In this document: piece by piece, positions 14,734-62,097 of the stretch
How the letters are laid out: every line of letters begins with the position of its first letter
Numbering within the stretch: position 1 is the stretch's first letter
Assembly: GCA_015680905.1 (NCBI GenBank)
Contig: CM027379.1
Location: 102,165,001-102,229,000 of the forward strand
Source: Coptis chinensis
Taxonomy: Eukaryota; Streptophyta; Magnoliopsida; Ranunculales; Ranunculaceae
Reading direction: 5' to 3'
Length of the DNA stretch: 64,000 nt
Program-made: the position numbers and the translations under genes
Notes under the pieces: generated by a model
The model's database searches: none
What the model saw: only the letters and a program-made list of their open reading frames with translations
Told to the model about the DNA's origin: nothing

Positions 14734-14799
<66 letters not shown>
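14734..14799. repeat. AT microsatellite
   Basis: Uninterrupted alternating AT run of about 66 bp at the left edge of the minisatellite array. Confidence 0.95.
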
Positions 14800-14801
<2 letters not shown>

Positions 14802-14811
14802 CTTGAATGAA

Positions 14812-17027: not shown

Positions 17028-17035
17028 ATAATTAA

Positions 17036-17999: not shown

Positions 18000-18119
18000 A
18001 ATGTTCACTTTTTTAGCCTTCTCACATGAGTAATTATGAATAATTAAGAACCCAAAACGAAAGTGAGTTTATAAAAATAGACTCTTACATGTATGCAAAC
18101 TATATATAAATTATAAACT

Positions 18120-18525
18120 ATCGAACTAACCTAAAAAAAATAATTAACGGAAAATCAAAAACTGGATGCAGATGTATTGAATTAACCTCAAAGAGTAATT
18201 AACGGGAGATTGGAACCTTGATGCAAATGCAATGAACTAATCTCAAATACTAATTAACGAAACATCGAAAACTGGATGCAACTGTACTGAATTAACCTTA
18301 ATAAATAATTAACGGGAAATCATAAAGTGGATGCAATTGCACTAAACTAACCTCAAATAATAATTAACGGGAAATCGAAAACTTGATGCAACTATATTGA
18401 ACTAACCTCAAAGAATAATTAATGGGAATTTGGAAACTGGATACAACGTACTATATTAAACTAACCTCAAAGAATAATTAATGAAAAATCAGAAACTTGA
18501 TGCAACTGTATTGAACTAATAACCC
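18120..18525 (+). repeat. 55-bp minisatellite, array 3
   Basis: About seven more units, separated from array 2 by roughly 120 bp of unrelated AT-rich sequence. Confidence 0.88.
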
Positions 18526-19001
18526 TAAAACATATTTGTATTATATGTAAGGGGAATAAATGTCTCGACAAATATTGTTTTGCATTTTAGGTAATATTTA
18601 TCATAATTCATTTATTGTGATTGGGAATGCCTTGCTATTCAAGTAGCTTCAATATTATCTTAGCCACATTGGGCATTCTCACAAAATTTCAATCAAACTT
18701 CTATTGTTAAACCTAACAATAAAAAGAAATCGATGAGTTTTATCAAGGTTTAATGCTTCCTTTTTATAGAGAGTGGTGCAAGATATTTAAATGAGTAATT
18801 AATATAATTTTCATATCTCATAGCTATGCATAGTTGCTAATATTTTTTAGAATAATTTAATATAATGACACCCGTTTGTAGGACACATTCATGTGATAAA
18901 TCTTTTCAAGTGGGAGTAGTGTATTCTTTGAGGATATGGAAACAATCAATCTGTTTTAGTGATTTGTACACATTAGTACGTAAGCTGAGCGGTGATGATT
19001 T

Positions 19002-19650
19002 ACCGCTAAATTACTATAAATCTAATAAAACTATTATACAAGCTAGACTGAGTTTAAGATAATTCCATTTGAAAATTACAGATTAATATCCTAAACCACA
19101 AAGTGAAAATGCTATCTCAATTTGATCTCTTACTTTCCAAGTACTTATGCACCATAATCGCTGCTCATTAACGTATTTTCGATTTATTTTCAATAAAAAT
19201 ATATTTTGATTCGAAAATTTGTCGCTAAATCACTATAAATATAATAAAACTATTATACAAGCTAGATCGAGTTTAAGATAATTATATTTGAAAATTACGG
19301 ATTAATATCCTAAACCACAAAGTGAATAGGCTATCTCAATTTGATCCCTTAGTTTCCAAGTATTTATGCACCATAATCGCTGCTCATTAACGTATTTCAG
19401 TTTATTTTCAATAAAAATATATTCGGATTCAAAAATTTGCCGATAAATCACCATAAATCTAGGAAAACTATTATACGAGCTAGATCGAGTTTAAGATAAT
19501 TCTATTTGAAAATTATGGATTAATATTCTAAACCACAAGAGGCTATCTTAATTTGATCCCTTAGTTTCCAAGTACTTAACCATAATCGCTGATCATTAAC
19601 ATATTTCGGTTTATTTTCAATAAAAATATATTCTTATTTGAAAATTTGTG
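19002..19650 (+). repeat. 218-bp tandem repeat, three copies
   Basis: CGCTAAAT..., ACTATTATACAAGCTAGA, GAGTTTAAGATAATT, ATCCTAAACCACAAAGTGAA and CACCATAATCGCTG recur with starts near 19004, 19223 and 19441. The third copy has short deletions. It lies near the 3' end of the Helitron-like element. Confidence 0.9.
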
Positions 19651-42959: not shown

Positions 42960-45113
42960 AATCTTATTCCCTATTTTAAGGGGTTTTTGAAAAAAGAGTG
43001 TTTACACAGGAGTTTACACGGAGAGTTTTAGACAGGGGAGAGAGTACAAAAAAGAGAGAGAACTTACTTTAAGGTTTGGGAATGAACCAACGAATAGCAC
43101 CACCGAAAGTGACATCTCCTTCTCAAAGAATACAAGTCAGCAAGTATCATTCTCTTATATTGGATAACATAGCATGAGAAACAATACCTTTGGTGTGTTG
43201 GTACGTCATCAAGGGATAGCTATTATTTTATGGAATCAACACCTCCTGCTAGTTGGAAAATGGAGGGGCGAATTCGGGTAAGTATGTTTTCATTAAATGA
43301 ATTTAATCATCTCATTATAAACAGGAAATTAGAATAACAAAGTGTAAAAGGGAGGAAAACAAAGACGTGGGTAGTAATCATTTCTTTCTATTCATTTTGT
43401 TGTCTTTTTTAATTAGAATGATTTGGTATATTTCTTGTCTTATACTAGACCTCCTCTTTAGCTAGTTATTATATGTGCATGGGAATTGTTTTCTTCATGA
43501 CCGTGAGGGGTGAGTATTATTTGGTATTTGTTTAGTTTACAGGTTTGTTACTAACTAATTATTCCTTTGATGTGGTGAAGTGTATGATTAAATCTTAAAT
43601 TGGGGTATGTTACTATGCATATTAGGTATTTTAGGTACTTGTATTAGAATTTAATTATTTATCACGGGTAGTTTCAGTTCAATTACAAGAATTCCATTTA
43701 ATTGAAGTATGTTATTGGACTGATTTCATTGTTGAATATGAGGAACTTATTTTATAGTTATAATAATCCTTCTTATTCTCTAAAAAAAATAAGTTATTAT
43801 AGTTACTGTTGACATGGTCAATTCGATGTATTTGACTAAACAGGTTCGCTGTGTGTGTTATGATCCATCTCTAAAGCTTAAAATATAAAATTTAGGGTGT
43901 GAAAACCATGTGGTAGCCCCATATTAAGAAAGAATAATTTTGGAGCTTTTGGATCAGATATTTGGATGCTTTGATATGCTACCTTTGCCTTGTTGTAAAT
44001 CTCAGGGAATTATATGCGTTAGAAATTCTATTCGTTAGAAAATAGTTTTATGCATTGGGTTTTGATCACAAATTGCATAAAGCTAGGGGGAGAATTTGAG
44101 TTTTTGTAAAACATGAAAATGTGCGTTTTATGAGTCTTCTTTCTAACTCAATTAGCCTCGTCACATTCCGAGTTCCATGGAATTAATTATGATGTCTGGA
44201 AGTTTGACTAGCAGAAAACAGTGCATCAAAAATCAGTTTCTGTGCACTGTGTTCAAGCCACGTTTTCGCACATTTAGAATGAGATTGAGTATTTTTATAA
44301 AACATAAGAAAGTAAGTTCTGTGTGTTAGATTTTCAATGCAAAAAGCCTCGATGCATTTGGATATCTGTGGAAAGAGTTGTGTCATTCGGAAGATAGTCC
44401 GTTAGAAATCTAGTTTGCTGAAAATTAGGATTTTTACCGTTTTCAACCTAAGTTTTCTTTTAGTTGGGCTTGGGCCTAGTTATAAGACTTGTGGGCTTAA
44501 GTTTTGTTTAAGTTAGTTTGGGCCAACTAAAGGTTTTGGGCTTTAGACTTTGGGTTTTGGTTAGATGGGTTAGAACTTGTTGACTGCTGTTGACCGTCGA
44601 CTTTGATTGTTGACCGTTGACTTTTTATTATTGACTGTTTAGACTTTTAACATATTGATCACTTTGTGGACAAATCCAATAATAGGATATTGTCGAAACT
44701 TGTATAAACATGTTTGTAATTATCTAATAAAGATTTGACGTGGTTTTATGCAATTATATATATTGGCATTGATGGACTTTGATTTTGACTATGTGGCTGA
44801 TAAGAACTACGAAGGCTTGATTCCAATCTTGAAAGATTTGGATACGTAGGTAACTTTGAGCAAAAGTGCAGCCACTATAATATATTATATAGTAGTTATT
44901 ATGATAATTATATATGTACAATGTTAATACTTAATTGTGTACGTGCTTGTGGTGGTTTAAAAGGTATTCACGAGGCATTTAATTAACGTGTTAATCATAA
45001 TTGAGAATCGGGATATCTATGATTTATATAATGGATAATGAGGTGAGGTGATTGGTTATTGTGTTTAGAATCTTTATTAATGATTATATTGCTTGAGACG
45101 ATGTTTATTTTAT
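42960..45113 (+). repeat. Left part of a large Gypsy-type LTR, split by the MULE
   Basis: The sequence shares blocks in opposite orientation with the LTR at 46452-49987, notably the GTTGACCGTTGACTTT cluster at 44578-44640 against GTCAACGGTCAACGGTC at 48406. The right part resumes at 62098 after the MULE. The start of the LTR was not located and lies somewhere near 42.8-43.0 kb. Assignment to a long-LTR Gypsy family is an inference from the TG..CA ends and length of its relative. Confidence 0.6.
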
Positions 45114-45231
45114 GAAAAAATGGACGTTTTGTACCATGAACTTTGCTGGTTTTATCAATTTGGGTCAAGAACTTTTTTTTTTGAGCAAATTGGGCCATGA
45201 CCTTTCTTTTTTGTATCAATTTGGGCCACCA
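45114..45231 (+). repeat. MULE left terminal inverted repeat
   Basis: About 118 bp, with GTACCATGAACTTTGCTGG, TTTTATCAATTTGGG and GAGCAAATTGGGCCATGA; matches the right end in reverse at roughly 94-95% by eye. Confidence 0.93.
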
Positions 45232-45623
45232 GTGTATTTCCATTAGAAAATTTGCCTATGTGTACAAATGGCTGCCTATGTGTACAAACGTCTACTTATG
45301 TGTGCTAACGGAAGATGGCATGTTGGTATTGAAATTGACAGCTAACAAAATTTGATGTGGCACTTACGTGACAAGCACCTGAAATTTCAAGGGAGACTGC
45401 TCGTGAAATTTCAAGGACTCGTGAAAATTTCAAGAACTCGTGAATTTTTTTCTTTCTTTCTAAATCGTCATCTCTCCATTTTTTTTATTCTGGACTTGTG
45501 AACATGAAGAAATAACCCCGTCTCCTTCATTTGTCTCTTAATCAAACCCCTTCTCCTTCATTATCTCATAAGTCTTCTAGTTGGTATTTTAATTTAGGGT
45601 TTTGATTTTATGCAATTTCGAAA

Positions 45624-46172
45624 ATGTCAACTACTGGAAATCTCTGTAATAGGTGTGGTGAGTCAAATCATTCGTCTAACAATTGTTGTTGGTTATCGAC
45701 ACCGTGTTGTTTTCGAAAATGTGGTGGAAGTAGGATCCTGAAACAGTCTTGCCAAAGCCATTCTCTTGGGCAATTTTTTTTTACATGCCGCGTTTGTGGA
45801 GACTTCCAGTGGTTGGAAGACACGAGAGCATCGTCAATAGTATCTTTGGAGAGTCTAAGATGCAGAAAGGCGAACTGCCTAGGGGTTAGAAAAGTTAACA
45901 CATCAAAAAAGAAAAATGAAAATGAAGGCAAGAAATTTGTGAATTGCACCGAGTGCGGGAGTGATTTCCAATGGTATGAGGAATTGTTAATGAACAACAT
46001 TGAGTTGGCAGCGAGTTCAAGCTCTTCCCCAACCAGCTCTTCATCATCTTCAAAAATAGATGAAATCAAAAGAGAAAAAAAAAAAAAAAAAAAAAAAAAA
46101 GTCAAGATTACATTTGAAATTGAGGACGATGGTTTGGCGAAGGAGTTTCAATTCCATTGTAAAATTAGATGA
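45624..46172 (+). CDS. MULE-borne zinc-finger ORF (CCHC + two GRF-like)
   Basis: An uninterrupted 182-codon ORF from ATG 45624. Residues 8-21 form a CX2CX4HX4C knuckle (CNRCGESNHSSNNC). A GRF-like finger follows at about 29-65, with GQFFFTCRVCGDFQWLED, and a second at about 78-119, with GKKFVNCTECGSDFQW. A Ser-rich linker and a Lys run of about nine residues, encoded by an A tract at 46077-46100, precede an acidic end. GRF fingers are known nucleic-acid-binding modules of nucleases, topoisomerase 3 and plant proteins of unknown role. It lies about 400 bp inside the left TIR and converges on the transposase gene. No stop or shift is visible, unlike its neighbours. The role is unknown; an accessory DNA-binding protein is inference. 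A spliced continuation cannot be excluded. Confidence 0.7.
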   Translation: MSTTGNLCNRCGESNHSSNNCCWLSTPCCFRKCGGSRILKQSCQSHSLGQFFFTCRVCGDFQWLEDTRASSIVSLESLRCRKANCLGVRKVNTSKKKNENEGKKFVNCTECGSDFQWYEELLMNNIELAASSSSSPTSSSSSSKIDEIKREKKKKKKKKVKITFEIEDDGLAKEFQFHCKIR

Positions 46173-46451
46173 GTGCAATGTGATTTCCAGTGGTATTGTA
46201 GTGGAAGGAGTTTGAGTGCACTGTCATTTCCAGTGGTATTATAGTAGTGGAAATAGTTTGAGTTTCAGTGTTAATTTAGTTTGAGTTGTTTGGTATTGTA
46301 GTAGTGGAATGAGTCTGTATTAGTGCACTATTTGTACTAGTGGAAGGAGTCTATATTAGTTTGAGTTGTTTGTTAATTTAGATGAGTGCACTATCTGTAG
46401 TAGTGGAAGGAGTCTATTAGTGGTATTGTAGTAGTGGAAGGAGTCTGTACT
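46173..46451 (+). repeat. Short imperfect repeats after the GRF ORF
   Basis: GTGGTATTGTAGTAGTGGAA, GGAGTCT and GTTTGAGTT units recur irregularly. It is probably the 3' untranslated part of the ORF, cut by the LTR insertion. Confidence 0.6.
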
Positions 46452-49400
46452 TGTCACACCCTGAATTTCGACAGAATTCGGAAAAACAATATTTGTTCCC
46501 GACTCTTCGATTTTCGAGGTGTGACGCACTCTCAACTACCAAAAACCCATAAACAGTTTAAATATGCAGATAATTAAAAACCAATAAAAAAAATTCAATT
46601 AAACAAAAGTCCTCTTCATTACAAAAATTCACAAATAAGATTAGGTTACAAATCTCTTTTCAATAACTCTTTATTTAAAATTACAAATAAAAATACAAAT
46701 GACATTGTCTCAACTGAAAATCTATTTCACCTCAAGAGAAAACAAAACCTATCTTGAAATACGACACTAATGCAAACCACAAGCAGCAACCAACCTTCTT
46801 CAACATAAAACCTGTCAAGACTTATCAACTATGTTCATTTAATGAATACACTCGATAAGCAAACGTGCAAATCGGGTCAGCATTATAAACAATGCTGGTG
46901 TGAGTAGCTCTAAAATACAATATATACTTATACATATACATACATCATCCATAAGGCAGTTAGTTCCTCCACCGAGGCGCCTTAACTTCCAACAACTAAT
47001 ACGACATTCTTAACTACAATAAGTAAGGCAGGTAGTTCCTCCACTGAGGCGCCTTAACTTCCCACTAACCACACAACAAACCATACGCATAATAAAAAGG
47101 CATTTAGTTCCTCCACGAGGCGCCTTAGGTTCTAACTAAGCTAATAACCAGTCAAGCATATTCTATACTTACCGCATGTCATGCTCAATTACAGAGTGGT
47201 CGTCTCTACACAAGTAATTAGTTTGACCCACACTTCTGCAAAACTATATACAATCATCTATCTAAAGATACATCATTAACCAACATATTACCATAATTAT
47301 ATTAATTAAGGCTTTCTTTGTGTGTCCCTAAAATCACGTCGTATCTATGCCTTACCTAGTTTCCCTAGCTACCACAATCGTTTCCCAACGCCGAACATGT
47401 ACATCCACATGCCTCCCCTCACATAATGAACCACTCCGTGCATAACTACCCTGAGCGGGATGCCGCACACCAGATAACCCTCACACGAAAGCCATTATAC
47501 AAGTACTGCCACTATTCGGCATAAAATATCGCGCGTCTCGTTCTAGTTTTGTGAACGAAATAATCAAGCCACCATTCGGCTACTCCAGAAGGGCCATTCA
47601 GCTTCCCTGAAATGCCAAAAGGGCTAATCACATTACTTACGCCAGAAGGGCCATTCAGATTCACTGAAACGCCCGAAGGGCCAATTATATCACATACACC
47701 CATCACAAAGGCCAAATCATATGAGTTGTGGTAGCTAGGTTCTAGGATTTTCGTTACGTAATTTATTTAGGTGTCATACATTAGTATCTCATAACCATTT
47801 CACTCTATCACATGCTAAATAAATTATTGCACTAAGCCACCATATTTGGAAAATCTCAATAATAATTCTTGTTCCATCTCATGCCAGTATACTTAATTGT
47901 ACTGAAGCTCAACGTTTCTCGTTATAATACAATCCACATTATCACGTGCCAATACTATTCATTGCACGATATCCAAATATCTCTATATCAAATCTCGAAA
48001 CTTATTATTTCAGGTGCCAATTATATATTGCACTACACCATATGAAATATCTCAAGCCTTCATAAATACTACAATCCATTTAAGTAGCAACTCATAATAA
48101 TAATCAATCATGACATGTATTCGTTCAATATATTTATGTGAACTCCATTCACCATCAAAGCCCAATACTAAAGTCCATGAATCTAAGTCTATGTGTAGTT
48201 TAATACTTATAAAAACATATATATCTAAGTCTTATAAGAATTCCCCTCTTGTTACGTGCCAGTACTTATATTCTTTACACACTACTCACGTCAAATCTGA
48301 ATTAGATAATGACAAACAAAGTTATACAATTTTCGATAATATTTTATTACTACATTTGTCCATAATCTTAAATATGTGAAAAATGGGAAAAAGTCAACAT
48401 TCTACAGTCAACGGTCAACGGTCAATGTCAAAGTCAAACTGTCATTTCCATGTTCAACAGGTTCAGGGTCATAGCCCTGGTTCATGGCTAAGGGCAAAGG
48501 TGCATGGCTCATGGGCTCATGACTAAGGAAACGGTTCGGACCCAATTAGCCTAGCCCAAACCCAAACCTTAGAACCCGACCCCAAAAGTCTAAACATTTA
48601 AAGACCCAATTAAATCTATTTTAAGTTATATGGACCGGCCCAAAACCAAATTAGAAACTGGCTCAAAACACAAATGGGTTCGGCCCAAAGATTTAAACTG
48701 AAACCGGCCCAAAACTTAAACTAAACTAGTCTGAAACAAAAGATTAGTCCGGCCCAACAACTAACTAGTGTTTAGGCCCAAAAACTTAAATCAAAACCAG
48801 CCCAACCAAAACAAAATAAGATCGGTCCAACCAAAACAAAATAAGGCCCAAGCCCCACTAATAGGTTTCGGCCCAAGGCCCAACCACATCAACAGAACCA
48901 GTATCGCCATTAACGCCCCTTCCTTCTTCTTCCTCCACCACCAGCCACAAACTAACCACCCACCGGCACTCCAACCTAACCGAAACGGTTCGGTTTTGAT
49001 CCCTTAGAAAAACCTCCTCTTTTGATACCCTCAAAACCCAATTCCCTCATACTGCGAAAACTCAACCTCGACCGCCATTGACGCCTATCGAAGCTTCCTC
49101 CGCACCACTGTCCAGCCCACACTCACCACCAAACCGTTGGGTTTTGATCCCCATCCACAACCAAATCTTTAGGGTATACTCAAAACCCAAAACAAAACTC
49201 ACTGCTCACCAATGGCGTTCGACGCCATTAACACCTCCAAGCTTTGACAACACCTTACCACCCATCGAAACATCACTAACCAATCCCATAACAAAATACA
49301 ACAGTTTAACATCACAAAAACAGAGTTCAAACAAATAAGAACAGGATGATTCCGTTCCTTTGGCTGGGCGACGCCATTGACGCCCTCTCAAGCTCCAACA

Positions 49401-49987
49401 GCACACCCAAATTATAATCCCGACGTCCAACCAACACACCACATACAAAAATAATAACAGTTCAATAATTATAATCCCAACACAAAACCAATACAACAGT
49501 TTCAACGATATACAGTACGAATGTTAGTTTAGGGCTCGCCATTGACGCTCTTTCGAGCTTCAACAGCCCCTTTCCCCGAGTTTCAATAATGCTACCATTA
49601 ACAAGTTTTAACAACGACATTAACAATAATAATGACGACAAAAGAATGCACAGAAATCATGAACGGAAACCTTGGACAGTAAAATTAGACCGTGAAATAT
49701 AAAACTAATCTACTCACCTATATTAAAACTCGACGAATCCCTCATCGTCCGAATCGTTGCGCTCCAACCCTTTAGCAAACTAGCTGCCTCCATTTTTATT
49801 TTATTTTATTTTTATCTCTAAACCCTATTCTCTAGAAAAATATGAATATATACTTGGGTTTGAAACCTAAGCCTAACACAGACTCGGGCCCAGAAATAAA
49901 GCCCACATATCCCAAATCCAATCCAACGAATTTTAACTAAATAATTAAATTAATTAATAAATACGTATTTTAAATACGGGCGTTACA
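46452..49987 (-). mobile_element. 3.5-kb LTR (solo or LTR-derived) inserted in the MULE
   Basis: The 3,536-bp unit runs TGTCACACCCTGAATTTCG ... ATACGGGCGTTACA on the plus strand, and GTACT/GTATT flank it as a 5-bp duplication with one change. On the minus strand it ends GGGTGTGACA, like the other LTR that ends at 63862. It has no coding domains. Internal features are three TTAGTTCCTCCAC..GAGGCGCCTTA repeats (46965-47135), repeats with AGAAGGGCCATTCAG (47575-47700), and a GGCCCAAA-rich part (48550-48880). A solo LTR of a long-LTR Gypsy family is the likeliest reading. Confidence 0.75.
46965..47135. repeat. Short repeat inside the 3.5-kb LTR
   Basis: Three copies of AAGGCA..TAGTTCCTCCAC, each followed by GAGGCGCCTTA, spaced by about 65-70 bp. 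Confidence 0.85.
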
Positions 49988-50439
49988 GTATTGGTGCTTG
50001 ATCAATTCTGACAACAAAGATTAGTTGTTTCTTTCTTATTGCTTGGTGCTTGTTTCTTAGTTGTTTCTTAGTGCTTACAATAACTGAAAGAAAGTTAGAA
50101 AATACACTGCACTGAACAACACAACATACAAAAAACCTGAATATAAGCACTGACCCACTAAACAACATAACATACACTGCATACAATAACTAAAAGAAAG
50201 TTAGAAAATCAATGTTGTACATAACATGACACTGAACCACAAAAAAACCTAAATATAAGCACCAAGTGTTTACATAACAGCATACACCAAGTGTTTACAT
50301 CAGTGTTTACACATCACAGCATACACCAACAAAAGGAAAAGATACTACAAAAGGAAACAGACAAAACAAAAACTGACTACGCAAAAGCCCAACAGAAATC
50401 CCAAAGCATGTACTGCATCACCAAGTCTTCAAACATGAA

Positions 50440-51541
50440 CTATTTCCAAACTTTAGTTTTGGCTTTGGCAGCTGCAAATCTAGTTTTAGGTTTGGAATTT
50501 GCTCTTGTTCTCATAGTCAAAGCAGCTATTTTCTGCTTAGTCTTGGATGGTGAGTTTCTAGACTTGCTGCTTGATGCTACTGCATCAGTTGTCAGTGATT
50601 GTGAGTTTCTTGATGCCACTACTTGATGGTGAGTTTCTTGATATTTAGTTTCTAGGGAAGCTGTAGATCTAGTTTTATGCTTGCTGCTTGATGCCACTGC
50701 ATCAGTTGTCAGTGATTGTTTGGAAGCAGTAGTAGAAGCTTGTGCAGAAGCAGTTGTCAGTGATTGTTTGGAAGCAGTTGTTGAAACTTGTTTAGATGCA
50801 CTTATTGAACCTTGACTGCTAGGTACTTGAGCTTCACTTGAAACTTGATTTGACTGTAAACTAATAACTAGAGCTTTACTAGATCGTCTGGGAAGTGGAG
50901 GTCTACCTTTTCTTTTGTTGTTTGCTTCAGAAATCTTTGCTTCATTTATAAGAATAGGTGCTCCAGTAGCTGACATTTATCATAAGAAGGACAAAAGATT
51001 AGGTTATGTTTATGAAGTATGTAAAACAACTACCTCATTTCAAATGGAAATCTTTCAAATGCAAAGTAGTTTCTAAAGTAGCATTACCTTCAAGTAAGAG
51101 TTTCCACTGTTAGCTGTAAAAACTCCAACTCCCTCAGGTACATGATCATTTCTTCCTTTTACTCCTGTCTTCCTCTTTGAAGCTCCCTGAGATACATCAT
51201 CAGCTGCCCTTTTACCTCTCTTTGACACAGTTAGCGTGCCCTCACCTACATTAGATGAGGGAGCATTATTCTCCTTCCTTGCCTATATCAAAATTCAAAC
51301 TTATTTCATAAACTTAAAAAAAAAAATCTAAAATTTATGATTTCAAAACTTAGAAAAAAAACTTATTTCATAAACTTACAGTGGTGGCAGCTGCTACTTG
51401 GTTGGCTTCCTGGTTGGCTTCATTGCTGACTTCAGTAGTCCTACTCTTAGTCCCACTTTTAACTGTCTCTTTACCCTTCTTTGTTGTCCCACTCTTAGTC
51501 CCAGATTTCTCAACAGCTACCTCCTTACCTCTCTTCCTCAC
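50440..51541 (-). pseudogene. MULE transposase, C-terminal exons
   Basis: Reading leftward: exon 51541-51380 (54 codons, Lys/Thr-rich: KSGTKSGTTKKGKETVKSG) lies between acceptor GATATAG and donor GTAAGT. Exon 51282-51088 (65 codons, ending GVFTANSGNSYLK) has the same acceptor GATATAG and donor GTAATG. A last exon from about 50970 to 50440 holds NNKRKGRPPLPRRS and a tail with repeated SKQSLTT, to the stop at 50440. The GVFTANSGNS-type block resembles the end of plant mudrA proteins. The phase into the last exon does not fit exactly, so its start is uncertain. These exons themselves show no stops. Confidence 0.6.
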
Positions 51542-53095
51542 CTATATCAAAATTATAATAATTATAAAATGCTTAGTTTCAAGAATGCTTAATAGTTTCA
51601 AATGATTTCTAAAACTAATTTCAAATGCTTAATATATATCTTAAAAGCTTTCTTGTTAATATATATTGATTGAAACCAAATACAAAACAAAACAAACTTA
51701 AAAACAAATCCCACTCTTCCCTATGTATGCTTATGTAAGCCTGTGAACAAGATATTCCAGACAGCTCTTTTAAGACATCTAGATTTACAGAAGACGCTAT
51801 GGTTGGGTCTGTTTTCTTCAAAAAGATTTCCACTTAAGTTTTACATATACCAGAAAATTTAATAGTCCAGAAGAAAGGACCCTGAACCATTCTGTACATG
51901 CTATTTCCAAGTTTTTGTAGGGCAATCTGATGGTACAGAACCTTGCATTGCATCCTTACATTCTTACCTACAACTCGAACAAAAGATTCTAAAACTAACC
52001 TGACAAACAAAAATGATTTTGGTTCTGTTACTACTTACTAGGGACTCTAGTTATTTGTTTCACAAAAATGATTCTGTATAAATCTTAATAGGAAACTAGC
52101 TGCAAGGCCTTGTTGCCTCAACACTAGAGCAAAGAATGCAGAGAAGAAAAGTTAGGAAGATAGTAGGGAAGAATCAAAGAGGAAATGAAAGAGTATTGGT
52201 GATTGTTTTTGGTACAGATTACAATCTGACAACTCCATTTTATTTGCTAACAGAACAAACAAATGTTGTTCTCTCTGAGACAATTTTATTCCTCAAACAA
52301 TGTTGTTAAATAAGTCCTAACAATGCTGAATTTACAGAAGGAGAGAAGATATGTAGAGAATAAAATGAGAGTTTTCAACATTGTTTATGATACTTATTAG
52401 ACTCTCATTACGCCTATTTGAAAACAAGGGAGGCAGTGAGCAAAAGAAAATTTGTTGACATTTCAGAGAATTGCTACATCTGAAATAACAAACTAGAACT
52501 TTCACAAGTCATTATCAGCTTGTAACCAACTCTTGTTGGTCTATTTAGAACTTCCAATACAATACCAAACAACTAGAGAGACATGATTAACAACTTTCAA
52601 GCATGTAAAACATAAATCTGACACTAATATTACCATTAACAAACATCAGCAGTTCAAAACACTCAGTTATATATTAAAATTCAAATAACCTGACAAACAA
52701 ATAAGCTTCAAATAACCTGACTCAGAAATAACCTGACAAAGTGATAACCTTCAAATAACCTGACAGACAAACAAATAACCTGACAAACAAATTGACAAAC
52801 AAATAACCTAACAAACAAATAACCTGACATACCACAGATTTTTTTTTGAACTTCAATACAAAAAAATCAATGTGAGGATAATACAAAAAAATCAATGTGA
52901 AACTTCAATCTTTTTTTTTTTCACTCTACAACTCAATCTCATAAAAAAAAACAATATAAAGGACAATATATAACACAGATTGCTAATAAACTTAGTATAT
53001 ATGACCATAAACCGATTTCTAAAACTGATTTCTAATGCTTAGTATATATCTTAAAACTGATTTCTAATGCTTAGTATATATGACCATAAACTTAC
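51542..53095 (-). other. Large intron of the MULE transposase gene
   Basis: Non-coding, AT-rich, between donor GTAAGT at 53095 and acceptor GATATAG at 51542. It contains a minisatellite at about 52681-52830 made of AAATAACCTGACAAAC units, and two near-identical TTTCTAATGCTTAGTATATA pieces close to the donor. Confidence 0.65.
52681..52830. repeat. Short-unit minisatellite in the intron
   Basis: AAATAACCTGACAAACA and variants are repeated about eight times with irregular spacing. Confidence 0.8.
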
Positions 53096-55273
53096 AGTGG
53101 TGGATTGTGGTACTTCCTGGGCTACTTCCTGAGCTACTTCTTGGTTGGCTTCATTGTTAGTTTCACTGTTGACTTCTTTGCATGTTCTCTTATTATGACC
53201 ATACTGAAGGCAGTTTGAACACCTCATTTGAACTCCTTTTCTACTTAAGGTTCCTAACTTCCTTGGCTCTTCATGCATGTCCTTCCTTCTAAGCTTGCTT
53301 GGCCTCCCAGGCATCCTTCTATAAGGTGGAGGCAGGAATACCTCTCTAGGAGCCTTTGGCCACAGCTTTTCACCATTAAGTGGCTGCAAGTAGTGATCAT
53401 AAGTCTTTCTAAATGTTTCCACCTTGTACCAATGATCTACATAATCATCTGGATTGTGCTTACACATATAAATGGCAGCTAGTGCATGGGCACATGGGAT
53501 ACCAGAGAGCTGCCACATTCTATATGTACAAGTCTTATCCTTGACATCAACTTTGTAACCTTCATCACCATATTTGGCCTCAAACGTTGACCCTTCACAA
53601 AAGAAAGACTCAAAAAACCTTGAGTCTAACTTGTTCTTCTCTAACTTGTTAACAATAGTTGGACACAAAGTGCCTTGCCACTTGGATTGACTCACCAATA
53701 AATCTCTTCTCTTCTGCATCCTTCTCATCATGGCAATCCTTATTTCCTCAAGCATTGCAATGATGTGCTTCTCTTTTGCATCAAGAATTGTACCATTAAA
53801 TGTTTCACATATATTGTTTTCTACTACATCAGAACTTGTGTAAAATTCGAAGAATGCTCTGGACTAAAACTTGGGGTTTTGGATATGTAACATATAGTCA
53901 GCTGCTACATCACATACCTTTCTCACCTCATCAATAACACGATAAAATTCTTCTAGTGTTCCACTTTTGGATGCTTTCCAAAATAAACCCTTGAGTTGTG
54001 CACCTGCTCAAATAACATAGCTACATTACATATGAATATTAAATCACATTTAGAATACAAATAAAAAAATAGACAAATTAAGTTATATACCTGAAAATTT
54101 CCTCCTGAAGTTAGCATAGATGTGCCTTGCACAACATCTATGCTCTGTATTAGGAAATCTTTCTGAAATGACTTTGAGAAGACCCTTTTGTTAGTCTGTA
54201 ATCACTATCAAACCAAGCCCATCATCCACATTGAGATCATTAAGGAGCAAGTTCATAAACCACCTCCAACTTTCTGTGTTTTCACCTTCAACAAGTGCCC
54301 ATGCAATAGGGTACATCTGGTTATTTCCATCCCTCCCAACTCTAGTTAACAATTCCCCTTTACAAAAAGATTTAAGAAAACAACCATCAAGACCAATGAC
54401 CCTTCTACACCCAGAAAACCAACCCTGCTTCAAGGCATCAAAACAAATGTACATTCTCTGAAAGTAACCTAGCTTATCTATCAATGGCCTTTTAACATCA
54501 ATTTTACATGTGCTTCCAGGGTTTGACTTCAGTATCTCAGCTGCATAGTCTCTCACTTTGGCATACACATCCTTTAAAGAACTATGAACTAGACTCAAGG
54601 CTTTCTTCTTAGCTTTGTAACACTGAAGTGGTGTCGCATCCAACTTCAAATTATGCAGTATCTCTCTCTTGAAATCCCTTACCTTCCACTTAAGGTTGTC
54701 TATGATCCTATCATTGTAATAATCAGCCAACCATTGGGAATTAGCTAATCTAATGCTAAAATGTCTCTTACACTTATGCTCATACTCTAAAGTCTTAATT
54801 TGCATACTGTTTTCAGTTTGCATGTAACTTGCATACAGAAACCAGCTACACCCATCACCAACACACACAACTTCAAATCTTCTAGCAGCATTTCTATTAA
54901 AATGAATTGGATACCCATTATGGACTACATATTTCTTTAAACATTCTTTAAGTTGTTTTGCATTACCAAACCTCATGCCAAGCTCAATTTGGATATTGGA
55001 CATCTTAACATTGGGGCTGAAAATTGGATACATCCTCTTTTTAACCTTCAAATTCCTCTTCCTCTCCTTAACAGAAGCAACATCCTCATCTTTTTCTTCA
55101 CTAGATTCGGGACTTAAATAGTCATCAGATGCAGCATAGTCAGACTCATCATCTCTAGCACCACCAGTATCCATCTCATTTGGTAGTTCATTTGCTACAT
55201 CACTTGCTTGTTCAATGGCTGCTTCACTTGCTTCTTCATGTGGTTCATCTGGTACATGATCAACTTCTTCAGT
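53096..55273 (-). pseudogene. MULE (mudrA-like) transposase core, two nonsense changes
   Basis: Reading leftward: an acidic region (DESDYAASDDYLSPESSEEK), the MuDR DNA-binding domain (GMRFGNAKQLKECLKKYVV; VVCVGDGCSWFLYASYM), then the DDE transposase part with its first Asp in RRVIGLDGCFLK and second Asp in GLIVITD. A TAA right after VITD (54189-54191) replaces a likely Gln codon before KGLLKVISERFPN. An 87-bp intron lies at 54004-54090. In the next exon a TAG near 53865 replaces the Trp of WSRAFF. A SWIM finger follows (CTYRMWQLSGIPCAHALAAI), then a CCHC knuckle (CSNCLQYGHNKRTC). The enzyme would cut at the MULE TIRs. The LINE cuts off its N-terminal part. Confidence 0.92.
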
Positions 55274-55540
55274 CTTATCTGCATACTTTTTTACCACTTT
55301 TAGTTTAAAAACAGCTTGTAATCAAAGTCTTATCTGCTAAACCTCTTGTTTTCTTGCCTTTCTGGGTAAAATCCTCCATTGCATAACAGTGAGAGTTCCG
55401 GAAAGGCCAAAAGCTCAAGATGGCTTCATCGAGTAACACCCCCCCCCCCTCAGTCACCATCGTCAACCATCAATGGGGATAATAGAAACAACTCTTGGAG
55501 GGCACTGTTTGGATGAAATGGCTCACATGAGTCAACAGTA

Positions 55541-56852
55541 GTGTTCAAAGAATTTACTCCTGTCATGGTGGATGGCGTAGCTCAGTTTCCCACTGAGTTA
55601 TTAAAACAAGGCATAAAGGAGTGGGATGATTACCTTGTAGGATATTTCCTGGATAAAAGACTCTCTTTTTTGTATGTGAAGGAACACTTACAGAATAAAT
55701 GGAAGCTAAAGGGTGCTTTTGATATCACTACTGACAAAGAATTGTTCTACATGAGGTTTACAAGCTCGGAAGATAGACAAATGGTTCTAGATGAAGGTCC
55801 TATCTTCATCGCGGGGAGAGTATTTGTTGTAAAGTCGTGGACTGTGGAGGTGGATAATTACAAAAACAAGGTAGCTTCGGTGCCACTATGGGTGAAACTT
55901 ATGGACGTACCCAAAGAGATGTGGACTTTTGAAGGGCTGTCATACTTTGTGAGCTTGGTGGGAGGGAGTCCAATGTTTATGGATGATGCTACTGCAAGAA
56001 GGAAAAGGCTGTCTTTTGCCCGATTTTGTATCAAGCTTCCAATAAACTATGAATATAAGGAAGTTATCAATGTGAAAGCAGGAAACCGTGAGGTTACTAT
56101 ACCACTAGAGTATCCATGGAAGCCGTTGTCGTGTACAAATTGCAATAAATTTGGGCATAAAGCAGACAAGTGCTCTGGCAGAACCACTAGAGTTTGGGTG
56201 CAAAGGCGGCCAGCGCAAGGCAGAAGGGCAGAAATATCGAGAGAAATAAATGAAGGTATAGGAACAGTGAGACAACCAGGAGCTGAACCCAGGCCTCCTC
56301 AGGCAGGAGTTGGTGAAGGAAACCTTGAAACAGCTATAATAAACACAAAGCAGTCATTGGTAATCAGGGAAATGGGAGCAACAGGCAATGAGGTAACAGA
56401 TGCCCAGAGTGGGCCTTGTACGCAAATAGTGGCATGGCAGCAAGGCCAAGAAAGCAACAGCGAAGGGGCAGCACAAAGTAATATAAATTTGATCGCTCCT
56501 AGAAGGGTGGAATGTAGTTTTGAAATAAACAATGAGGAGGAAAGTTCAGTGGTAGTGTTCCAAACACCTACCCAACAGAGTAGACAAATTAAGGAATACT
56601 GAAGCAGAACAGTTTTGTGCTGAAAGGAATATTTTTGAAGAGCTTGCTGGTCTCGAAGATGATGATTTGTCGGATGCTGAACTAGAACTCTTCGGAGATT
56701 CAAACTCTTCTCCGAGGAATTTGCAAGAGATTACAGAGGGAACAATTGTTCAAACTAGAGCCCAGAAGAAGAAAAATACAGAGCAGCAAGTAAATTCTGG
56801 GAAAAGAGGAAAGGGTAGACCAAAAGGGAGTGGTAAGCGAAAGAACCGGTAA
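55541..56852 (+). pseudogene. LINE ORF1 (DUF4283, CCHC knuckle), frameshifted near its end
   Basis: ATG 55541 opens a 353-codon frame with a DUF4283 domain (residues about 20-160; DITTDKELFYMRFTSSEDRQ, later VPLWVKLMDVPKEMW) and a CCHC finger near residue 200 (CTNCNKFGHKADKC). It stops at 56602, but the next frame from about 56603 continues in ORF1 style to 56852 with an acidic part (LEDDDLSDAELELFGDS) and a basic end (GKRGKGRPKGSGKRKNR). One frameshift near 56600 is therefore likely. ORF1 proteins bind the LINE RNA and accompany ORF2. Confidence 0.85.
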
Positions 56853-56866
56853 ACTGTCTCCTCAAT

Positions 56867-59800
56867 GACAAAAATCTGCAGGTAGAATGTTAGGGGTATG
56901 AATGATGGGTTAAAAGCAAAACAGATGTGCAAGTTTATTGTGGATAATAAGATTAGTTGTATGGGGTTTTTGGAAACTAAAGTGAAGATGTAAAAGTACT
57001 TAAATATTTTTGATATAGCCTGCCCAAATTGGGAGATTGACTACAACTACTCTAGTGATGAACGAGGAAGAATTTGGCTTACGTGGGATGGTAGTTATGT
57101 AGCTGTCCAAAAGGAAGTGGAAGGCTCCCAATTTATTCACTGCAAGGTTACCTTACTGCAATATGGAATCTCTTTTTTCTTAACTACGGTTTATGGAAGT
57201 AATAATAGTCATGATAGACTAATTTTGTGGGAAGAGTTAAAGGCTATCAGTACAGGAGTTCATGGCCCATGGTGTGTTATGGGGGACTTCAATAATGTGT
57301 TGTTCTCGCATGAGAGAATAGGTGATAGGGTTATTCACCCGAGAGAAACGCAGCCCTTTTCAACATGCCTTAATGTAGCTGGACTTTTTGATCACTCAGC
57401 AATGGGATGTTTTTATACTTGGAATAGTGGAGGCGATCATATGAGGAAATGGTCAAAAATAGCCAGGTGTCTTGTAAATGCAGCTTGGTCCTCTTTAAGT
57501 TTGGCAACAAAGGTGGAATTCTTAACTCAAGGACCATCCGATCACTACCCTATGGTGATATCTTTCCTCAATTCTATCAGAAGCCACCCACCGTTTAGAT
57601 TCTGCAACTTCTGGATGCTCCGCCATCAAGATTTTGAGAGTTCGCTAAAAGTGTGCTGGGAAATAACAGACCATGGGAACCCTAATTTCATGTTAACAAG
57701 AAAGCTTAAGAGCTTGAAGGCAGTTATGAAAGGCTGGGCAAATAATTGCTGCAGTGACACCCATAGACTGGTGGAAGAGACAAGAAAGGTGTTAAAGGCA
57801 GTTCAAGAAAACCTGCATAAAAATCCGCTTGATTGTGCTCTGAGTGCCCAAGAATATGAAATAAAAGAGAAGCTATGTTTTCTGATCAGGCTTGAGGAAG
57901 CAGATATTTTACACAAAACTGACATTGAGTGGTTATGTTTTGGTGACAAATGTAGTGGATACTTTTTTAATGCTTTAAAGGAGAGGATGACCAAAAAATA
58001 TGTTTGGGATATTACTGATGCACAGGGTGTAAGAAGAGAAGGCAAAGAACAAGTAGCGGAGGCTTTTGTGGAATATTATTCGGAGCTTCTCGGGGTTACT
58101 TCCTCTGCTTCATGTGATGCCGGTTATCTTAATAGTCTGAGTATGGAAGAGATCTCTCTTGACACAAGTCGGTTCTTGGCATCACCAATTTCTGATATTG
58201 AGATCAAAGAAGCCTTCTTTGCAATGGAGGACAATAAAGCACCAGGGCCGGATGGGTTTAATGCCTATTTCTTCAAGGAAAGTTGGTCTACCGTTGGAGA
58301 AGATTTCAAAAGGGCTATCAAACACATCTTTCTCCATAAAATGATGACAGGAGGTATAAACTCCACATTGCTCTGTCTTATTCCTAAATTGAGAAATGCA
58401 TTGAGTGTTGCTTCTTTTAGACCTATCGCATGTTGTAATATTATATACAAATGTGTGTCTAAAGTACTAACAAACAGAATGAAGAGTTATATCTCCTCGT
58501 TGGTTTCATGCACCCAATCGGCGTTTATTCCGGGACAAACCATCCAAGATAATCTGCTGTTAGCTCATGAGCTGCTAAGGGGCTATGCGAGAAAGAAAGG
58601 CCAGAAGAGGTGTGCTATCAAGCTGGACATAAAGAAAGCCTATGATTCTGTGTCGTGGCACTTGAGGCCATATTACAAAAGTTTAAATTCCCCCCTGTGT
58701 TCATTGAATGGTTGTTTATGTGCTACGCATCTCCTTGGTACTCTGTAATGGTAAATGGGACACCGGAAGGGTATTTTGAAGGTAAAAGAAGACTTCAACA
58801 GGGGGACCCAATTTCACCATATCTCTTTGTGCTTGTCATGGAGGTATTAAGTGCTGCTTTAAGTCAAGGGCTTCAGTTGAAAAGGATAAAAGCTCATTCA
58901 AAGTGCAAGAAGCTGGCCATTTCCCACCTCTGCTTTGCAGACGACATACTTCTATTCTGCAAAGGCAACATGGAGTCTGTCATGGCTATCAAAGATATTC
59001 TGTATACTTTCTCTCAAGCAACAGGATTACATCTTAGCAATGAAAAGACTACTATTCTTACTGGAAGTATGTCTGAAGAAGAGGGACTAGAGCTAGCTGC
59101 AGCAATGAATATCTCTCTGGTAACTCCACATGTTACCTACCTAGGGCTACCTCTCACTGCCTCAAGACTAGGTATACGGGAATGCTTGCCCCTCATAGAA
59201 AAGATCACAGCTCGGATTTCAAACTGGAAGAACAAAGATCTTAACAGAGCAGGTAGAGTTTAGTTGGTTAAGTCTGTCCTCACATCCTTCCTGTCTTATT
59301 GGGCCCAAACTTTTGTCCTTCCGCAGACAGTACTTGATAAAGTGGCCAAGTTGTGTAATAGATTTATTTGGGCTGGTTCAAATATGGCTAGAAATATGCA
59401 TCATGCTAGTCATGGAAGGCTCAGACTAGATAAAGATCAAGGTGGACTGGGGATTTTGGATCCGCTTATTGTGGGTTGGTTATCAAAATTGCGAAGAAAC
59501 ATGAGTGCTTGTGGGTTAAATGGTCATGGGATAATCACATAAAACATGAGCACTTTTGGACGATGAAGACCCCTCGAGACTGCTCTTGGGTTTGGAGAGG
59601 GGTGATGAAGCATCGGGAAATTACTTGGAAGTTTGTAAGGTATTGTATAGCAAATGGAGAGGAGACTAGTTTCTGGCATGACCCATGGTGCTCAGGGCCT
59701 CTTATCAAGAATGAACAGGCGAGAAATCTCCTTGCACATGTAGTACCTGAAGATGCAAAGGTCACGGAAGTGATAGCTGATGGTGGTTGGGCGAGAACTA

Positions 59801-60988
59801 TAGCTGATCTTCCAGAGTGCAAAGTAAAGAAATGGATAATGTAAACTGAGATAAATTCTCACATTGAAAAAGACCAGATCACATGGACTCCAACCAATAC
59901 AGGAGCATTCATGATTTCTTCAGCATATGCAGCTCTCAAAAATGTGTGAAACAAGGTAAAATGGTACAAGATTGTATAGGGGAACTCATTTACCATCTGG
60001 AAACTGTTCTCGGGTGCGCTACCTACGCAGAATCGACTGATGAAAAAGGAGGTGATTGGAACGTCAAAATGCTGCCTGTGTGACAGTCATGAAGAAAGCT
60101 CGGGCATCTCTTCTTTGATTGCGATTATTCACAGCTTGTATGGAGAAACTTCAAAAGAGCTATGGGGCATCCAGAAATGGTAAAACCTTCACACAATGAA
60201 TGGTACTATCTAATGCGCATTTGTCGTACCTCCACAGTGGCAAATAAGATCATACAGGCTATGATTTGCACGGCAGTTCAGGCAATCTGGACAGAGAGAA
60301 ACTGGAGACCGAAGAAACAAAGGTTCAGACTGGCTGATGTTGTTAGCTTGAAGGTATTGAATAACATGAAAATCTATTTGGGAAATTCGATGGAATCAGT
60401 GAAGGAGGGTGAGGTAACAAAGAGGATACTGAGCACGATGGGAATTGGAGTAAACTATACGCGAGCAGAGGATACATGGGTAAAATGGAACAAGGCAGAG
60501 GATGCAATACCAACACTGAACCTAGATAGATCGGTGCAGGCAGGAAGTGCTAGCTATGGGGGCATGCTGAGATATCGAAATGGTGATGTGCTGATGGCTT
60601 TTGGTGGAAGTTCGGCAAAAATGTCTGTGCTATATCAGGAGCTTCTTGGAGTCTGAAAGGCTTGGAAGGTACTGCAGATTTGAATATCCAAATGGCTACA
60701 AGTGCAATCGGATTCTATGAGAGTCATCCAGATCTTGAGTGTTAAAGAAAAGCCACCTTGGTACTGCAGGAACGTGGTTGTGCATATACAAAAGGTGGTC
60801 TCAAAGTTTGAAGATGTTAAGTTCAAGCATGTGTTCAGGGAGGGTAACCAACCTGCCGACTACCTAGCAAAAGTAAGTAGGGACTGTTGTAATGAAACCA
60901 TGTACTATATTCCACCTATGGATCAAAAACTCGATAAACTGATTAAGGGGGATAAAGAAGGGAAAATGTACTTGAGAGGTTGCCATTA
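56867..60988 (+). pseudogene. LINE ORF2 (endonuclease-RT-RNase H), broken
   Basis: Domains in order: apurinic-type endonuclease (NVRGMNDGLKAKQM, ETKVKM, then MGDFNNVLF near 57280 and GPSDHYP near 57530); reverse transcriptase (KAPGPDGFNAYFFKESW near 58240; RPIACCNIIYKCVSKVLTNR; GDPISPYLF near 58803; catalytic FADD at 58934-58945); zf-RVT region (decayed CCLCDSHEE near 60069); RNase H (GGMLRYRNGDVLMAFGG near 60558; FREGNQPADYLAK near 60834). Breaks include a stop near 56990, a shift at about 58663 inside RT, a TAG at 59261, and further stops at 59542, 59842, 59947, 60654 and 60680. The protein would nick target DNA and copy the LINE RNA in place. Confidence 0.9.
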
Positions 60989-61059
60989 AATAAAAAGGTC
61001 GGGGTATCCTTAACCCCTAGTTATTTCAAAAAAAAAAAAAAAAAAAAAACTTCTTCAGT

Positions 61060-61611
61060 ACCTGATTTCTTCTTTTTATATACTTGATTTCTATATTTCT
61101 TTTCCTAACTTCAATCAATTCGTCATCATCTTCACTAATATGATCCGGAGTTGCTACTTCAGACACAGTCTCAGACTCAGACTCAGACTTAGACTCAGAC
61201 TCACTCTCTTCCAAACAATCACCCACATCAACCTCTTTGTCATCTTCAGACTCTTCAACATCATCACCTTGCTCATGTTCAACATAAATAGCTACCCTCT
61301 CATTTTTTTGCCATTTTCATCATTTCTATAATATCTTTATCATCATTGACTATCCTAAGCCCAATGTCTAGAGGCTTATTAGGATCATTATAAAACATCT
61401 TAACCATATCTTTCACATGACATTCTTGCTCAATCATACCCTTCAACTCAAAATATGACATTTTATCTGGATCGATGTTGTAAAAGTATTGAACTCTCTC
61501 ACCCTTGTAATACAAGATGTGCTTCATAAACCACTTATACCCATCATAGAGCTTAGTTGGGTCTCTCTGAAATTTCCCACCAAAGAAAAGTTCTATATAG
61601 TAATAATCCAT
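61060..61611 (-). pseudogene. MULE transposase N-terminal part (PB1-like + acidic)
   Basis: The ATG at 61611 starts a PB1-like domain (IELFFGGKFQ; YYKGERVQYFYNIDPDKMSY; FELKGMIEQE), which opens many plant mudrA transposases. The frame stops at about 61300, and an acidic stretch with Ser-Glu repeats (SESESKSESESETVSEV) and DHISEDDDELIEVRKRN continues in another frame to the LINE insertion. A frameshift or small intron lies between. The frame entering the LINE and the frame leaving it also differ, so another shift or intron is needed. The core is at 53096-55273. Confidence 0.82.
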
Positions 61612-61970
61612 GCTTAATTAGTTGCTTGATTTGGTGGATTGGGGATTGGGGTTTAATTAAGTTTTTTAATTTAAAAATTTGGGAATTTGGGAATTAGGGT
61701 TTTCTGTCTGAATTTGGGAATTAGGGAATTAGGTCTGAATTTGGGGATTTCTATCAACTAAGTGTGAGTTTGCCTCAAGGTTCAAACCACGTGCAACGTG
61801 CATTCAAAACACGTGCAACTTCTGTGAAATTTTCGGGTTCGAAACATTTTGAAATTTCGATGCACGTCACCGGTGATTAGGTGTGCACTTCAACGGTGAC
61901 ACATGAGCATTTGGTCGGACACATATACATCTTACACGCCACATAAGCATGTGAACTAACGGAATGGTAA

Positions 61971-62088
61971 CAGTGGCCCAAACTAATACAAAAAGGAAAG
62001 TTCATGGCCCAATTTGCTCAAAAAAAAAACTTCTTGGCCCAAATTGATAAAACTAGCAAAGTTCATGGTACAAAACGTCCATTTTTTC
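61971..62088 (-). repeat. MULE right terminal inverted repeat
   Basis: About 118 bp; on the minus strand it reads GAAAAAATGGACGTTTTG, then GTACCATGAACTTTGCTAG and ends near GGGCCACTG. It matches the left TIR with about six differences. Confidence 0.93.
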
Positions 62089-62097
62089 TTATTTTAT

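What the first reader, a model, noticed from the sequence alone, without database searches (positions are those of the whole stretch)
45624..46172. Undamaged GRF/CCHC zinc-finger ORF in an otherwise dead element
The ORF is open for 182 codons with a perfect CX2CX4HX4C knuckle and two GRF-like fingers, while the transposase of the same element has at least two nonsense changes and a LINE in it. A short, basic, multi-zinc-finger protein encoded by a transposon could be an accessory DNA/RNA binder, a regulator of the transposase or an anti-silencing factor. Its openness may be due to selection, to recent capture or to chance over a short length.
Basis: partly seen in the sequence, partly recalled or inferred. 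Interest (0 to 1): 0.75.

Follow-up and report, generated by a model that had tools for sequence, protein, structure and literature searches.

The report
Helper-like gene shared by two transposons
A small zinc-binding-protein gene in a dead plant transposon turns out to belong to dozens of related transposons and also to a second transposon family with an unrelated transposase, as if such jumping genes had traded an accessory part.

Summary
The ORF is real: window 45624-46172 (+), 182 codons, exact CX2CX4HX4C knuckle, two GRF-like ribbons below Pfam's cut-off. It lies in a Mutator-like element (45114-62088, perfect 9-bp TSD), convergent with a broken MuDR-type transposase, in Coptis chinensis. 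That this copy is open needs no selection (chance about 0.19 at its sisters' decay rate). The family does show constraint: omega 0.50 on internal branches (2dL 11.1), 0.36-0.48 between subfamilies, 14 of 14 cysteines shared; but a transposase control shows no internal/terminal contrast. Unexpectedly, a second subfamily (76-82% DNA identity, coding sequence only) goes with different TIRs and a FAR1-type transposase: one element read from TIR to TIR, and 13 of 40 transposase places with the gene within 7 kb. The transposase pieces compared do not align beyond 22 SWIM residues, so the gene was probably exchanged between MULE lineages, or taken up twice. A word-based protein search found no homologue outside Coptis. 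Best reading: an accessory gene at the position of maize mudrB and barley Abermu ORFR, probably a helper that binds single-stranded nucleic acid. Expression, zinc binding and function are untested. New variant of a known kind.

The parts
45105..45113 (.). target-site duplication, left copy TTATTTTAT
   Evidence: identical to 62089-62097
45114..45263 (+). left terminal inverted repeat of the MULE (GAAAAAATGGACG...), upstream of the GRF gene
   Evidence: its first 33 nt match 224 times in the genome at up to 3 mismatches, 0 in the control
45624..46172 (+). accessory ORF, 182 codons (subfamily A of the GRF/knuckle family)
   Evidence: copies
45645..45686 (+). CX2CX4HX4C knuckle (aa 8-21)
   Evidence: its cysteines and the histidine are shared by the A and B majority sequences
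45705..45818 (+). first GRF-like ribbon (aa 28-65)
   Evidence: sequence pattern read by eye; no Pfam hit
45861..45980 (+). second GRF-like ribbon (aa 80-119)
   Evidence: Pfam PF06839, 16 bits at aa 84-120, cut-off 25.9
46075..46100 (+). 26-A tract coding for lysines, 18 nt longer than in most A-type sister copies, in frame
46452..49987 (+). nested solo LTR (TGTCACACC...GTTACA), flanks GTACT / GTATT
   Evidence: sister elements printed there read straight through; blast gap
50440..50976 (-). probable last exon of the transposase gene (MSATGAPILINEAKI...KRKGRPPLPRR...)
   Evidence: similar open frames in L012, L015 and L016; splicing not shown; no Pfam hit
53084..55273 (-). transposase main part (DBD_Tnp_Mut, MULE, SWIM; CCHC pattern) with an 87-nt intron and two nonsense codons (54191-54193 and 53864-53866)
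55274..61047 (+). nested LINE with A-tail, TSD AACTTCTTCAGT
61048..61611 (-). transposase N-terminal exon (MDYYYIELFFGGKF...) with two frameshifts
61939..62088 (-). right terminal inverted repeat of the MULE
62089..62097 (.). target-site duplication, right copy TTATTTTAT

Best explanation
The ORF is one copy, in a dead element, of a true accessory gene of a Coptis MULE family. It points inward from its own TIR, convergent with the transposase gene that points inward from the other TIR, the layout of maize mudrA/mudrB. While elements were active the protein was under purifying selection; after insertion single copies decay. The same gene is carried by a second MULE lineage with unrelated TIRs and a FAR1-type transposase, with homology limited to the coding sequence, so the gene was exchanged between lineages (or taken up twice from one source). 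Most likely the protein binds single-stranded DNA or RNA through its knuckle and ribbons and helps transposition or integration without depending on a particular TIR sequence. Shown: layout, copies, selection signal on the A-B divergence, CDS-limited sharing. Inferred: expression, exchange and its direction, zinc and nucleic-acid binding, helper role.
For: A-type elements without large inserts or deletions (e.g. L012 6944, L016 6743, L021 7062, L023 6837 bp) carry GRF(+)/transposase(-) between TIRs; exact direct repeats of 9-10 nt at both ends in 8 of the 12 elements printed. Codon ML on 40 copies: omega internal 0.50 (2dL 11.05 against 1), zinc part 0.46 (2dL 10.9); 12 A-B pairs give omega 0.36-0.48, 2dL 8.1-15.1; 14 of 14 cysteines and 126 of 166 residues identical between A and B majority sequences. 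B element L052: TIRs 449-649 / 7101-7298, GRF-B at 1646 (+), transposase (-) that is 90% identical in DNA to the FAR1-type gene of L049. 13 of 40 scored FAR1-gene places have a GRF-B place within 7 kb, 7 of them convergent; random placement mean 0.026. B-TIR in inward orientation within 1.6 kb upstream of 7 of 40 GRF-B and 6 of 40 FAR1 places (using 97 of the 100 listed of 217 TIR places). A and B transposase pieces show no significant BLASTP match apart from 22 residues of SWIM (E 0.002), and their DNA-binding domains differ (DBD_Tnp_Mut; FAR1). L035 shares TIR and flanks with A only, though its ORF is as close to B (80%) as to the window (79%).
Against: The transposase control does not show the internal/terminal contrast (internal 0.80, 2dL 0.52; terminal 0.69, 2dL 11.7), and the GRF zinc part has terminal omega 0.75 (2dL 5.9), so the branch-class test is not clean. 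Internal branches off the A-B path are not significant by themselves (0.58, 2dL 2.5). Six of the 13 linked B places have GRF and FAR1 on the same strand (five with GRF upstream, one downstream), and termini of that variant were not found. Only one B element (L052) was read from TIR to TIR; its GRF copy is broken and its right TSD is unclear; a guess at the ends of a second (L053, L054) found no B-TIR. 27 of 40 FAR1 places have no listed GRF-B within 7 kb (both lists are capped). No expression data. Fold and zinc binding unproven. Relatives in other plants not found, so the source is unknown.
Confidence: 0.6

Rival explanations
1. VANC-like anti-silencing or sequence-specific regulator: the protein binds repeated motifs in its own element and relieves silencing.
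For: Accessory protein of a MULE, as VANC is; A elements carry mirrored clusters of GAAATTTC at about 240-300 nt from both ends; locus L049 carries arrays of the palindrome ACGGTGTGGCCACACCGT; AAATTTC is above all 60 shuffles in both L016 (16) and L052 (9, shuffle maximum 8).
Against: Shared 8-10-mers at element ends are at the level of shuffles; GAAATTTC occurs once in L052; background window blocks of 7 kb hold up to 14 AAATTTC; no motif repeated in both A elements and L049. A sequence-specific factor should take its motif along. VANC sequence similarity was not tested.
Confidence: 0.2
2. Both MULE lineages captured the gene independently from a host gene (Pack-MULE style) and no exchange between elements took place.
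For: MULEs capture host sequence (PMC9168764 passages); homology between A and B is CDS-limited.
Against: No host gene appears: of four Coptis proteins found, P0002 is the L016 element copy and P0003 is GRF-B joined to FAR1 sequence; P0004 and P0005 were not located. The search reaches only relatives sharing 5-residue words and of similar length, and the genome-wide family search did not complete, so a host gene is not excluded.
Confidence: 0.2
3. The gene was in the common ancestor of both MULE lineages and was inherited vertically while transposase and TIRs diverged.
For: Same position and orientation in A elements and in L052.
Against: GRF A-B neutral divergence is only about 0.4 per site whereas the transposase pieces do not align and differ in domains; L035 keeps A flanks at equal GRF distance.
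Confidence: 0.05
4. The open frame is chance: no functional gene, just a short stretch that escaped damage.
For: P(0 disablers) = 0.19 for this copy.
Against: Homologous frames in 39 other copies, omega below 1 on the A-B divergence, all cysteines kept.
Confidence: 0.03

Closest known systems
Abermu MULEs with ORFR (barley and other plants; PMC9168764: passages, and sections 16 and 23 read)
   Same: TIR element with 9-bp TSD; extra gene of unknown function transcribed opposite to the transposase, in type II between the transposase gene and the 3' TIR; Ka/Ks below 1; origin unresolved
   Different: No zinc motif of ORFR is mentioned in what I read; sequences were not compared; here one accessory gene is shared by two lineages with unrelated transposases
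MuDR mudrB / MURB of maize (passages of PMC6446971, PMC8224964 and PMC9168764)
   Same: two genes in opposite directions, the second beside its own TIR; second gene of unclear biochemistry, said to be needed for new insertions
   Different: MURB was not compared here; the Coptis protein has a knuckle and GRF-like ribbons
VANC of VANDAL elements (Arabidopsis; PMC5735166 passages)
   Same: accessory protein of a MULE
   Different: VANC binds motif arrays of its own family; no clear motif common to A and B elements here
GRF zinc ribbon family PF06839 (as in APE2, NEIL3, TOP3A; these members recalled)
   Same: C...C...F-X2-C-X2-C...F-X-W pattern
   Different: scores below Pfam's curated cut-off; fold not shown
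FAR1/Jittery-type MULEs (table passage in PMC6446971)
   Same: B elements encode FAR1, MULE and SWIM domains
   Different: the table passage lists one ORF for the dicot and monocot Jittery sub-group; here a second GRF gene, convergent in L052

Membership tests
Mutator-like element (MULE) | long TIRs and 8-10 bp TSD | tested here: met
   TIR 86% complementary over 152 nt (93% over 119), TSD TTATTTTAT on both sides
Mutator-like element (MULE) | MULE transposase domain | tested here: met
   PF10551 36 bits (cut-off 27.6), PF03108 33.7 (25), PF04434 33.9 (19.6)
mudrB/ORFR-like accessory gene (by position) | gene next to the TIR opposite the transposase, convergent | tested here: met
   for A; L052 for B; 6 of 13 linked B places are same-strand
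MURB (by sequence) | sequence similarity to maize MURB | not tested
   no MURB sequence was fetched
mudrB/ORFR-like accessory gene (by position) | transcribed from its own TIR | not testable with these tools
   no RNA data held
GRF zinc ribbon PF06839 | score above curated cut-off 25.9 | tested here: not met
   16.0 bits; B 19.0 and 19.2
GRF zinc ribbon PF06839 | zinc ribbon fold | tested here: inconclusive
   AlphaFold2 model mean pLDDT 39.4
CCHC zinc knuckle | CX2CX4HX4C | tested here: met
   pattern only, no Pfam CCHC hit
VANC anti-silencing protein | motif arrays common to elements that share the protein | tested here: inconclusive
   none beyond shuffles; AAATTTC above shuffles in L016 and L052 but, in L052, not above the densest background blocks
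VANC anti-silencing protein | loss of methylation when expressed | not testable with these tools
   needs plants

The most novel reading that the evidence does not exclude
MULE lineages with unrelated transposases and TIRs exchange accessory genes as portable modules: a GRF/knuckle gene moved between a MuDR-type and a FAR1-type lineage in the Coptis line, took up the same end and orientation, and works as a TIR-independent nucleic-acid-binding helper of transposition.
Probability: 0.4. Interest if true: 0.75.

Novelty: new variant of a known kind. Interest (0 to 1): 0.55.

Why it matters
What the second genes of MULEs do, and whether they share one ancestor or were captured separately, is stated as open for Abermu (PMC9168764, section 23). 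Here one accessory gene is carried by two MULE lineages with unrelated transposases, under constraint, in one genome. A gene that functions with two different TIRs and transposases narrows its possible roles to ones that do not need TIR recognition, and gives a natural pair for testing.

Tried and rejected
Structure prediction on the five-protein alignment gave mean pLDDT 39 (1 of 2 jobs used); I ran no fold search on it. PDB sequence searches gave only C2H2 zinc-finger and other weak matches (best E 8.6e-6 to 'Aart'); the best ones lie on the CX2C part of the second ribbon, where our protein has no histidines, so I treat them as spurious. Plasmid tblastn gave one chance hit, E 0.7. Protein searches (all 3 used) gave four Coptis proteins, and one frog C2H2 protein at E 0.014. 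A DNA motif common to A and B elements was sought: nothing clear, AAATTTC being the one lead. Papers: (Mutator-like, GRF zinc finger, transposase) found none; (MULE, GRF-type) listed four, none on transposons by title, not opened; one search was unspecific. That covers the held open-access library only. The idea that this copy is kept open by selection was rejected. P0003, P0004 and P0005 look like gene models run on into neighbouring sequence (FAR1, unknown, L37ae), not longer forms of the protein. Five of 16 loci with a transposase match (L017, L018, L020, L024, L026) were dropped before the transposase test, for inserts or low coverage.

Full report
What is there. Window 45624-46172 (+) is open for 182 codons and begins with an exact CX2CX4HX4C knuckle, followed by two units of the pattern C-X4-C...F-X2-C-X2-C...D-F-Q-W and a basic, serine-rich tail. 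Pfam finds GRF only below its cut-off (16 bits against 25.9, second unit; 19.0 and 19.2 bits in two subfamily B copies), so 'GRF-like' is fair and 'GRF' is not shown. The predicted model was useless (mean pLDDT 39.4).

The element. Terminal inverted repeats of about 150 nt bound 45114-62088 with a perfect 9-bp duplication TTATTTTAT. Inside are a solo LTR (46452-49987, flanks GTACT/GTATT) and a LINE (55274-61047, 12-bp duplication), which the sister elements compared do not have at those places. The transposase runs on the minus strand from 61611: an N-terminal exon with two frameshifts, then a main part with DBD_Tnp_Mut, MULE and SWIM domains, a CCHC pattern, an 87-nt intron and two nonsense codons. 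The GRF ORF starts 510 nt from the left end and points towards the transposase gene, so the two genes are convergent.

The family. A DNA search of the window's own genome gave 41 matches at 40 places, 40 scored of 147 candidates. I analysed the window and the 39 others. They fall into an A type (window, L009-L034, and the outlying L035; 28 in all) and a B type (L036-L047; 12). The A TIR is found upstream of the ORF in 23 of the 27 A-type copies other than the window (some of them in part), and a second, inverted one in 14 of the 20 fetched at 10 kb. Of 12 elements whose ends were printed, 8 show an exact direct repeat of 9 or 10 nt (read by eye: L011, L012, L014, L016, L017, L020, L021, L023), L013 one with a mismatch; L010 is uninformative (T run) and I see none for L009 and L022. 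Elements without large inserts or deletions measure about 6.7-7.1 kb (L010, L012, L016, L021, L022, L023).

Is this copy special? Strictly intact frames: 3 of 28 A-type (window, L012, L016) and 5 of 12 B copies. From the disabling events in the other 26 A copies, L035 left out (52 events over 0.768 substitutions per site of terminal branch; indels in the A tract not counted, events shared by descent counted more than once) one expects 1.65 in the window copy, P(0) = 0.19; 4 of the 26 also have none. So its openness is ordinary. None of the 12 transposase main parts compared (window and 11 of 16 loci) is free of stops or of indels that are not multiples of three, the intron's included.

Selection on the lineage. 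Zinc part alone: 0.46 (2dL 10.9) and 0.75 (5.9); tail: 0.62 (1.3) and 1.33 (1.6). Twelve pairs of A and B copies give 0.36-0.48 with 2dL 8.1-15.1 and about 0.4 neutral substitutions per site; in a three-class fit only the A-B path is significant by itself (0.47, 2dL 8.4), other internal branches are not (0.58, 2dL 2.5). Against: the same test on the transposase gives internal 0.80 (2dL 0.52) and terminal 0.69 (2dL 11.7), so the contrast of branch classes cannot be leaned on; the A-B divergence can. All 14 cysteines are shared by the A and B majority sequences, which agree at 126 of 166 residues.

The second lineage. DNA identity of the window to B copies is 75-77% in the genome search and about 81-82% over the trimmed codons. 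The match begins in codon 5 and ends 1-19 nt behind the stop codon (edges). L035 has A-type TIR and flanks, yet its ORF is as far from the window as from B (79% and 80%). In B loci a different transposase is near: FAR1 64 bits, MULE 103 bits, SWIM 27.6 bits in three frames of L049. Of 40 scored FAR1-gene places (of 619 candidates) 13 have one of 40 scored GRF-B places (of 147) within 7 kb: 7 convergent, 5 same strand with GRF upstream, 1 same strand with GRF downstream; random placement of GRF gives 0.026 on average, 2 at most in 1000 trials. L052 shows a whole element: TIRs 449-649 and 7101-7298 (terminal 78 nt 90% complementary), GRF-B at 1646 (+), itself broken, and on the minus strand a transposase gene 90% identical to that of L049. 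Its TSD is uncertain: ATATATATG lies on both sides, on the right behind a partial TIR repeat. The end of this TIR occurs 217 times in the genome with 0 in the control; among 97 typed places it lies inward-facing within 1.6 kb upstream of 7 of 40 GRF-B and 6 of 40 FAR1 places, and in the opposite orientation at 0 and 1. At C5:31.20-31.24 Mb two such TIRs bracket a FAR1 gene and a convergent GRF-B 33 kb apart. A guess at the ends of the L042 element found no such TIR, and the same-strand variant's ends were not found.

Why exchange. The transposase pieces of A (window) and B (L049) show no significant BLASTP alignment except 22 residues of the SWIM motif at E 0.002, while the GRF genes are far closer. 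One common ancestor element is therefore unlikely. Exchange between lineages, or uptake of one common source by both, remains; direction is not resolved. No protein outside Coptis was found (one frog C2H2 protein at E 0.014 set aside), but that search needs shared 5-residue words and similar length, and the genome-wide Pfam search did not complete.

How it may work. From general knowledge of these folds (recalled), knuckles and GRF ribbons often bind single-stranded nucleic acid. A gene that works beside two unrelated TIRs should not depend on one TIR sequence, and no clear motif is common to both elements: end k-mers are at shuffle level, no repeated motif is common to A elements and L049; AAATTTC is above all 60 shuffles in L016 (16) and L052 (9), while background blocks of 7 kb hold up to 14. 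I therefore prefer a general nucleic-acid-binding helper of transposition, as suspected for MURB (said to be crucial for insertion, PMC9168764 section 23), over a VANC-like motif-specific anti-silencer (PMC5735166, passages). This step is inference.

Literature seen: PMC6446971, PMC5735166 and PMC8224964 as found passages; PMC9168764 as passages plus sections 16 and 23; others only as search listings.

Noticed in passing
A elements, e.g. L016 (element coordinates 247-291 and 6470-6512 of 6743): Palindromic GAAATTTC clusters sit at mirrored places about 240-300 nt from both ends of L016 (some at 450-500 nt on the left); six A elements have 5-7 each, against 5 in 44 kb of window background (up to 5 in one 7-kb block): possible binding sites of the A transposase.
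   Followed up: partly
L049:2949-3382 and 6912-7844: Two inverted arrays of a palindrome built on AACGGTGTGG (33 half-sites in 9.1 kb) flank the FAR1-type transposase gene; recombination between them could flip the gene and explain same-strand arrangements.
   Followed up: no
L050/L049 (C4:79.806-79.812 Mb): Two GRF-B copies stand back to back: an inverted one followed by a B-TIR, and the forward one of a variant whose own termini were not found.
   Followed up: partly
P0004 (protein database, Coptis chinensis): A more divergent GRF copy (66% to the window) running on into unrelated sequence may mark a third lineage carrying the gene; not located in the genome.
   Followed up: no
genome: Among the 100 listed A-TIR places at least 14 inverted pairs lie only 1.1-1.6 kb apart, so a short non-autonomous derivative of the A family has been amplified.
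   Followed up: no
window 14784-19649: Large blocks of diverged tandem repeats (68-89% identity) seen in the self-comparison.
   Followed up: no
L036 and L047, just upstream of the GRF-B start codon: Both read TTTTTGTTACTGTAG directly before ATG, like a 3' splice site, so GRF-B may be a later exon of its gene.
   Followed up: no
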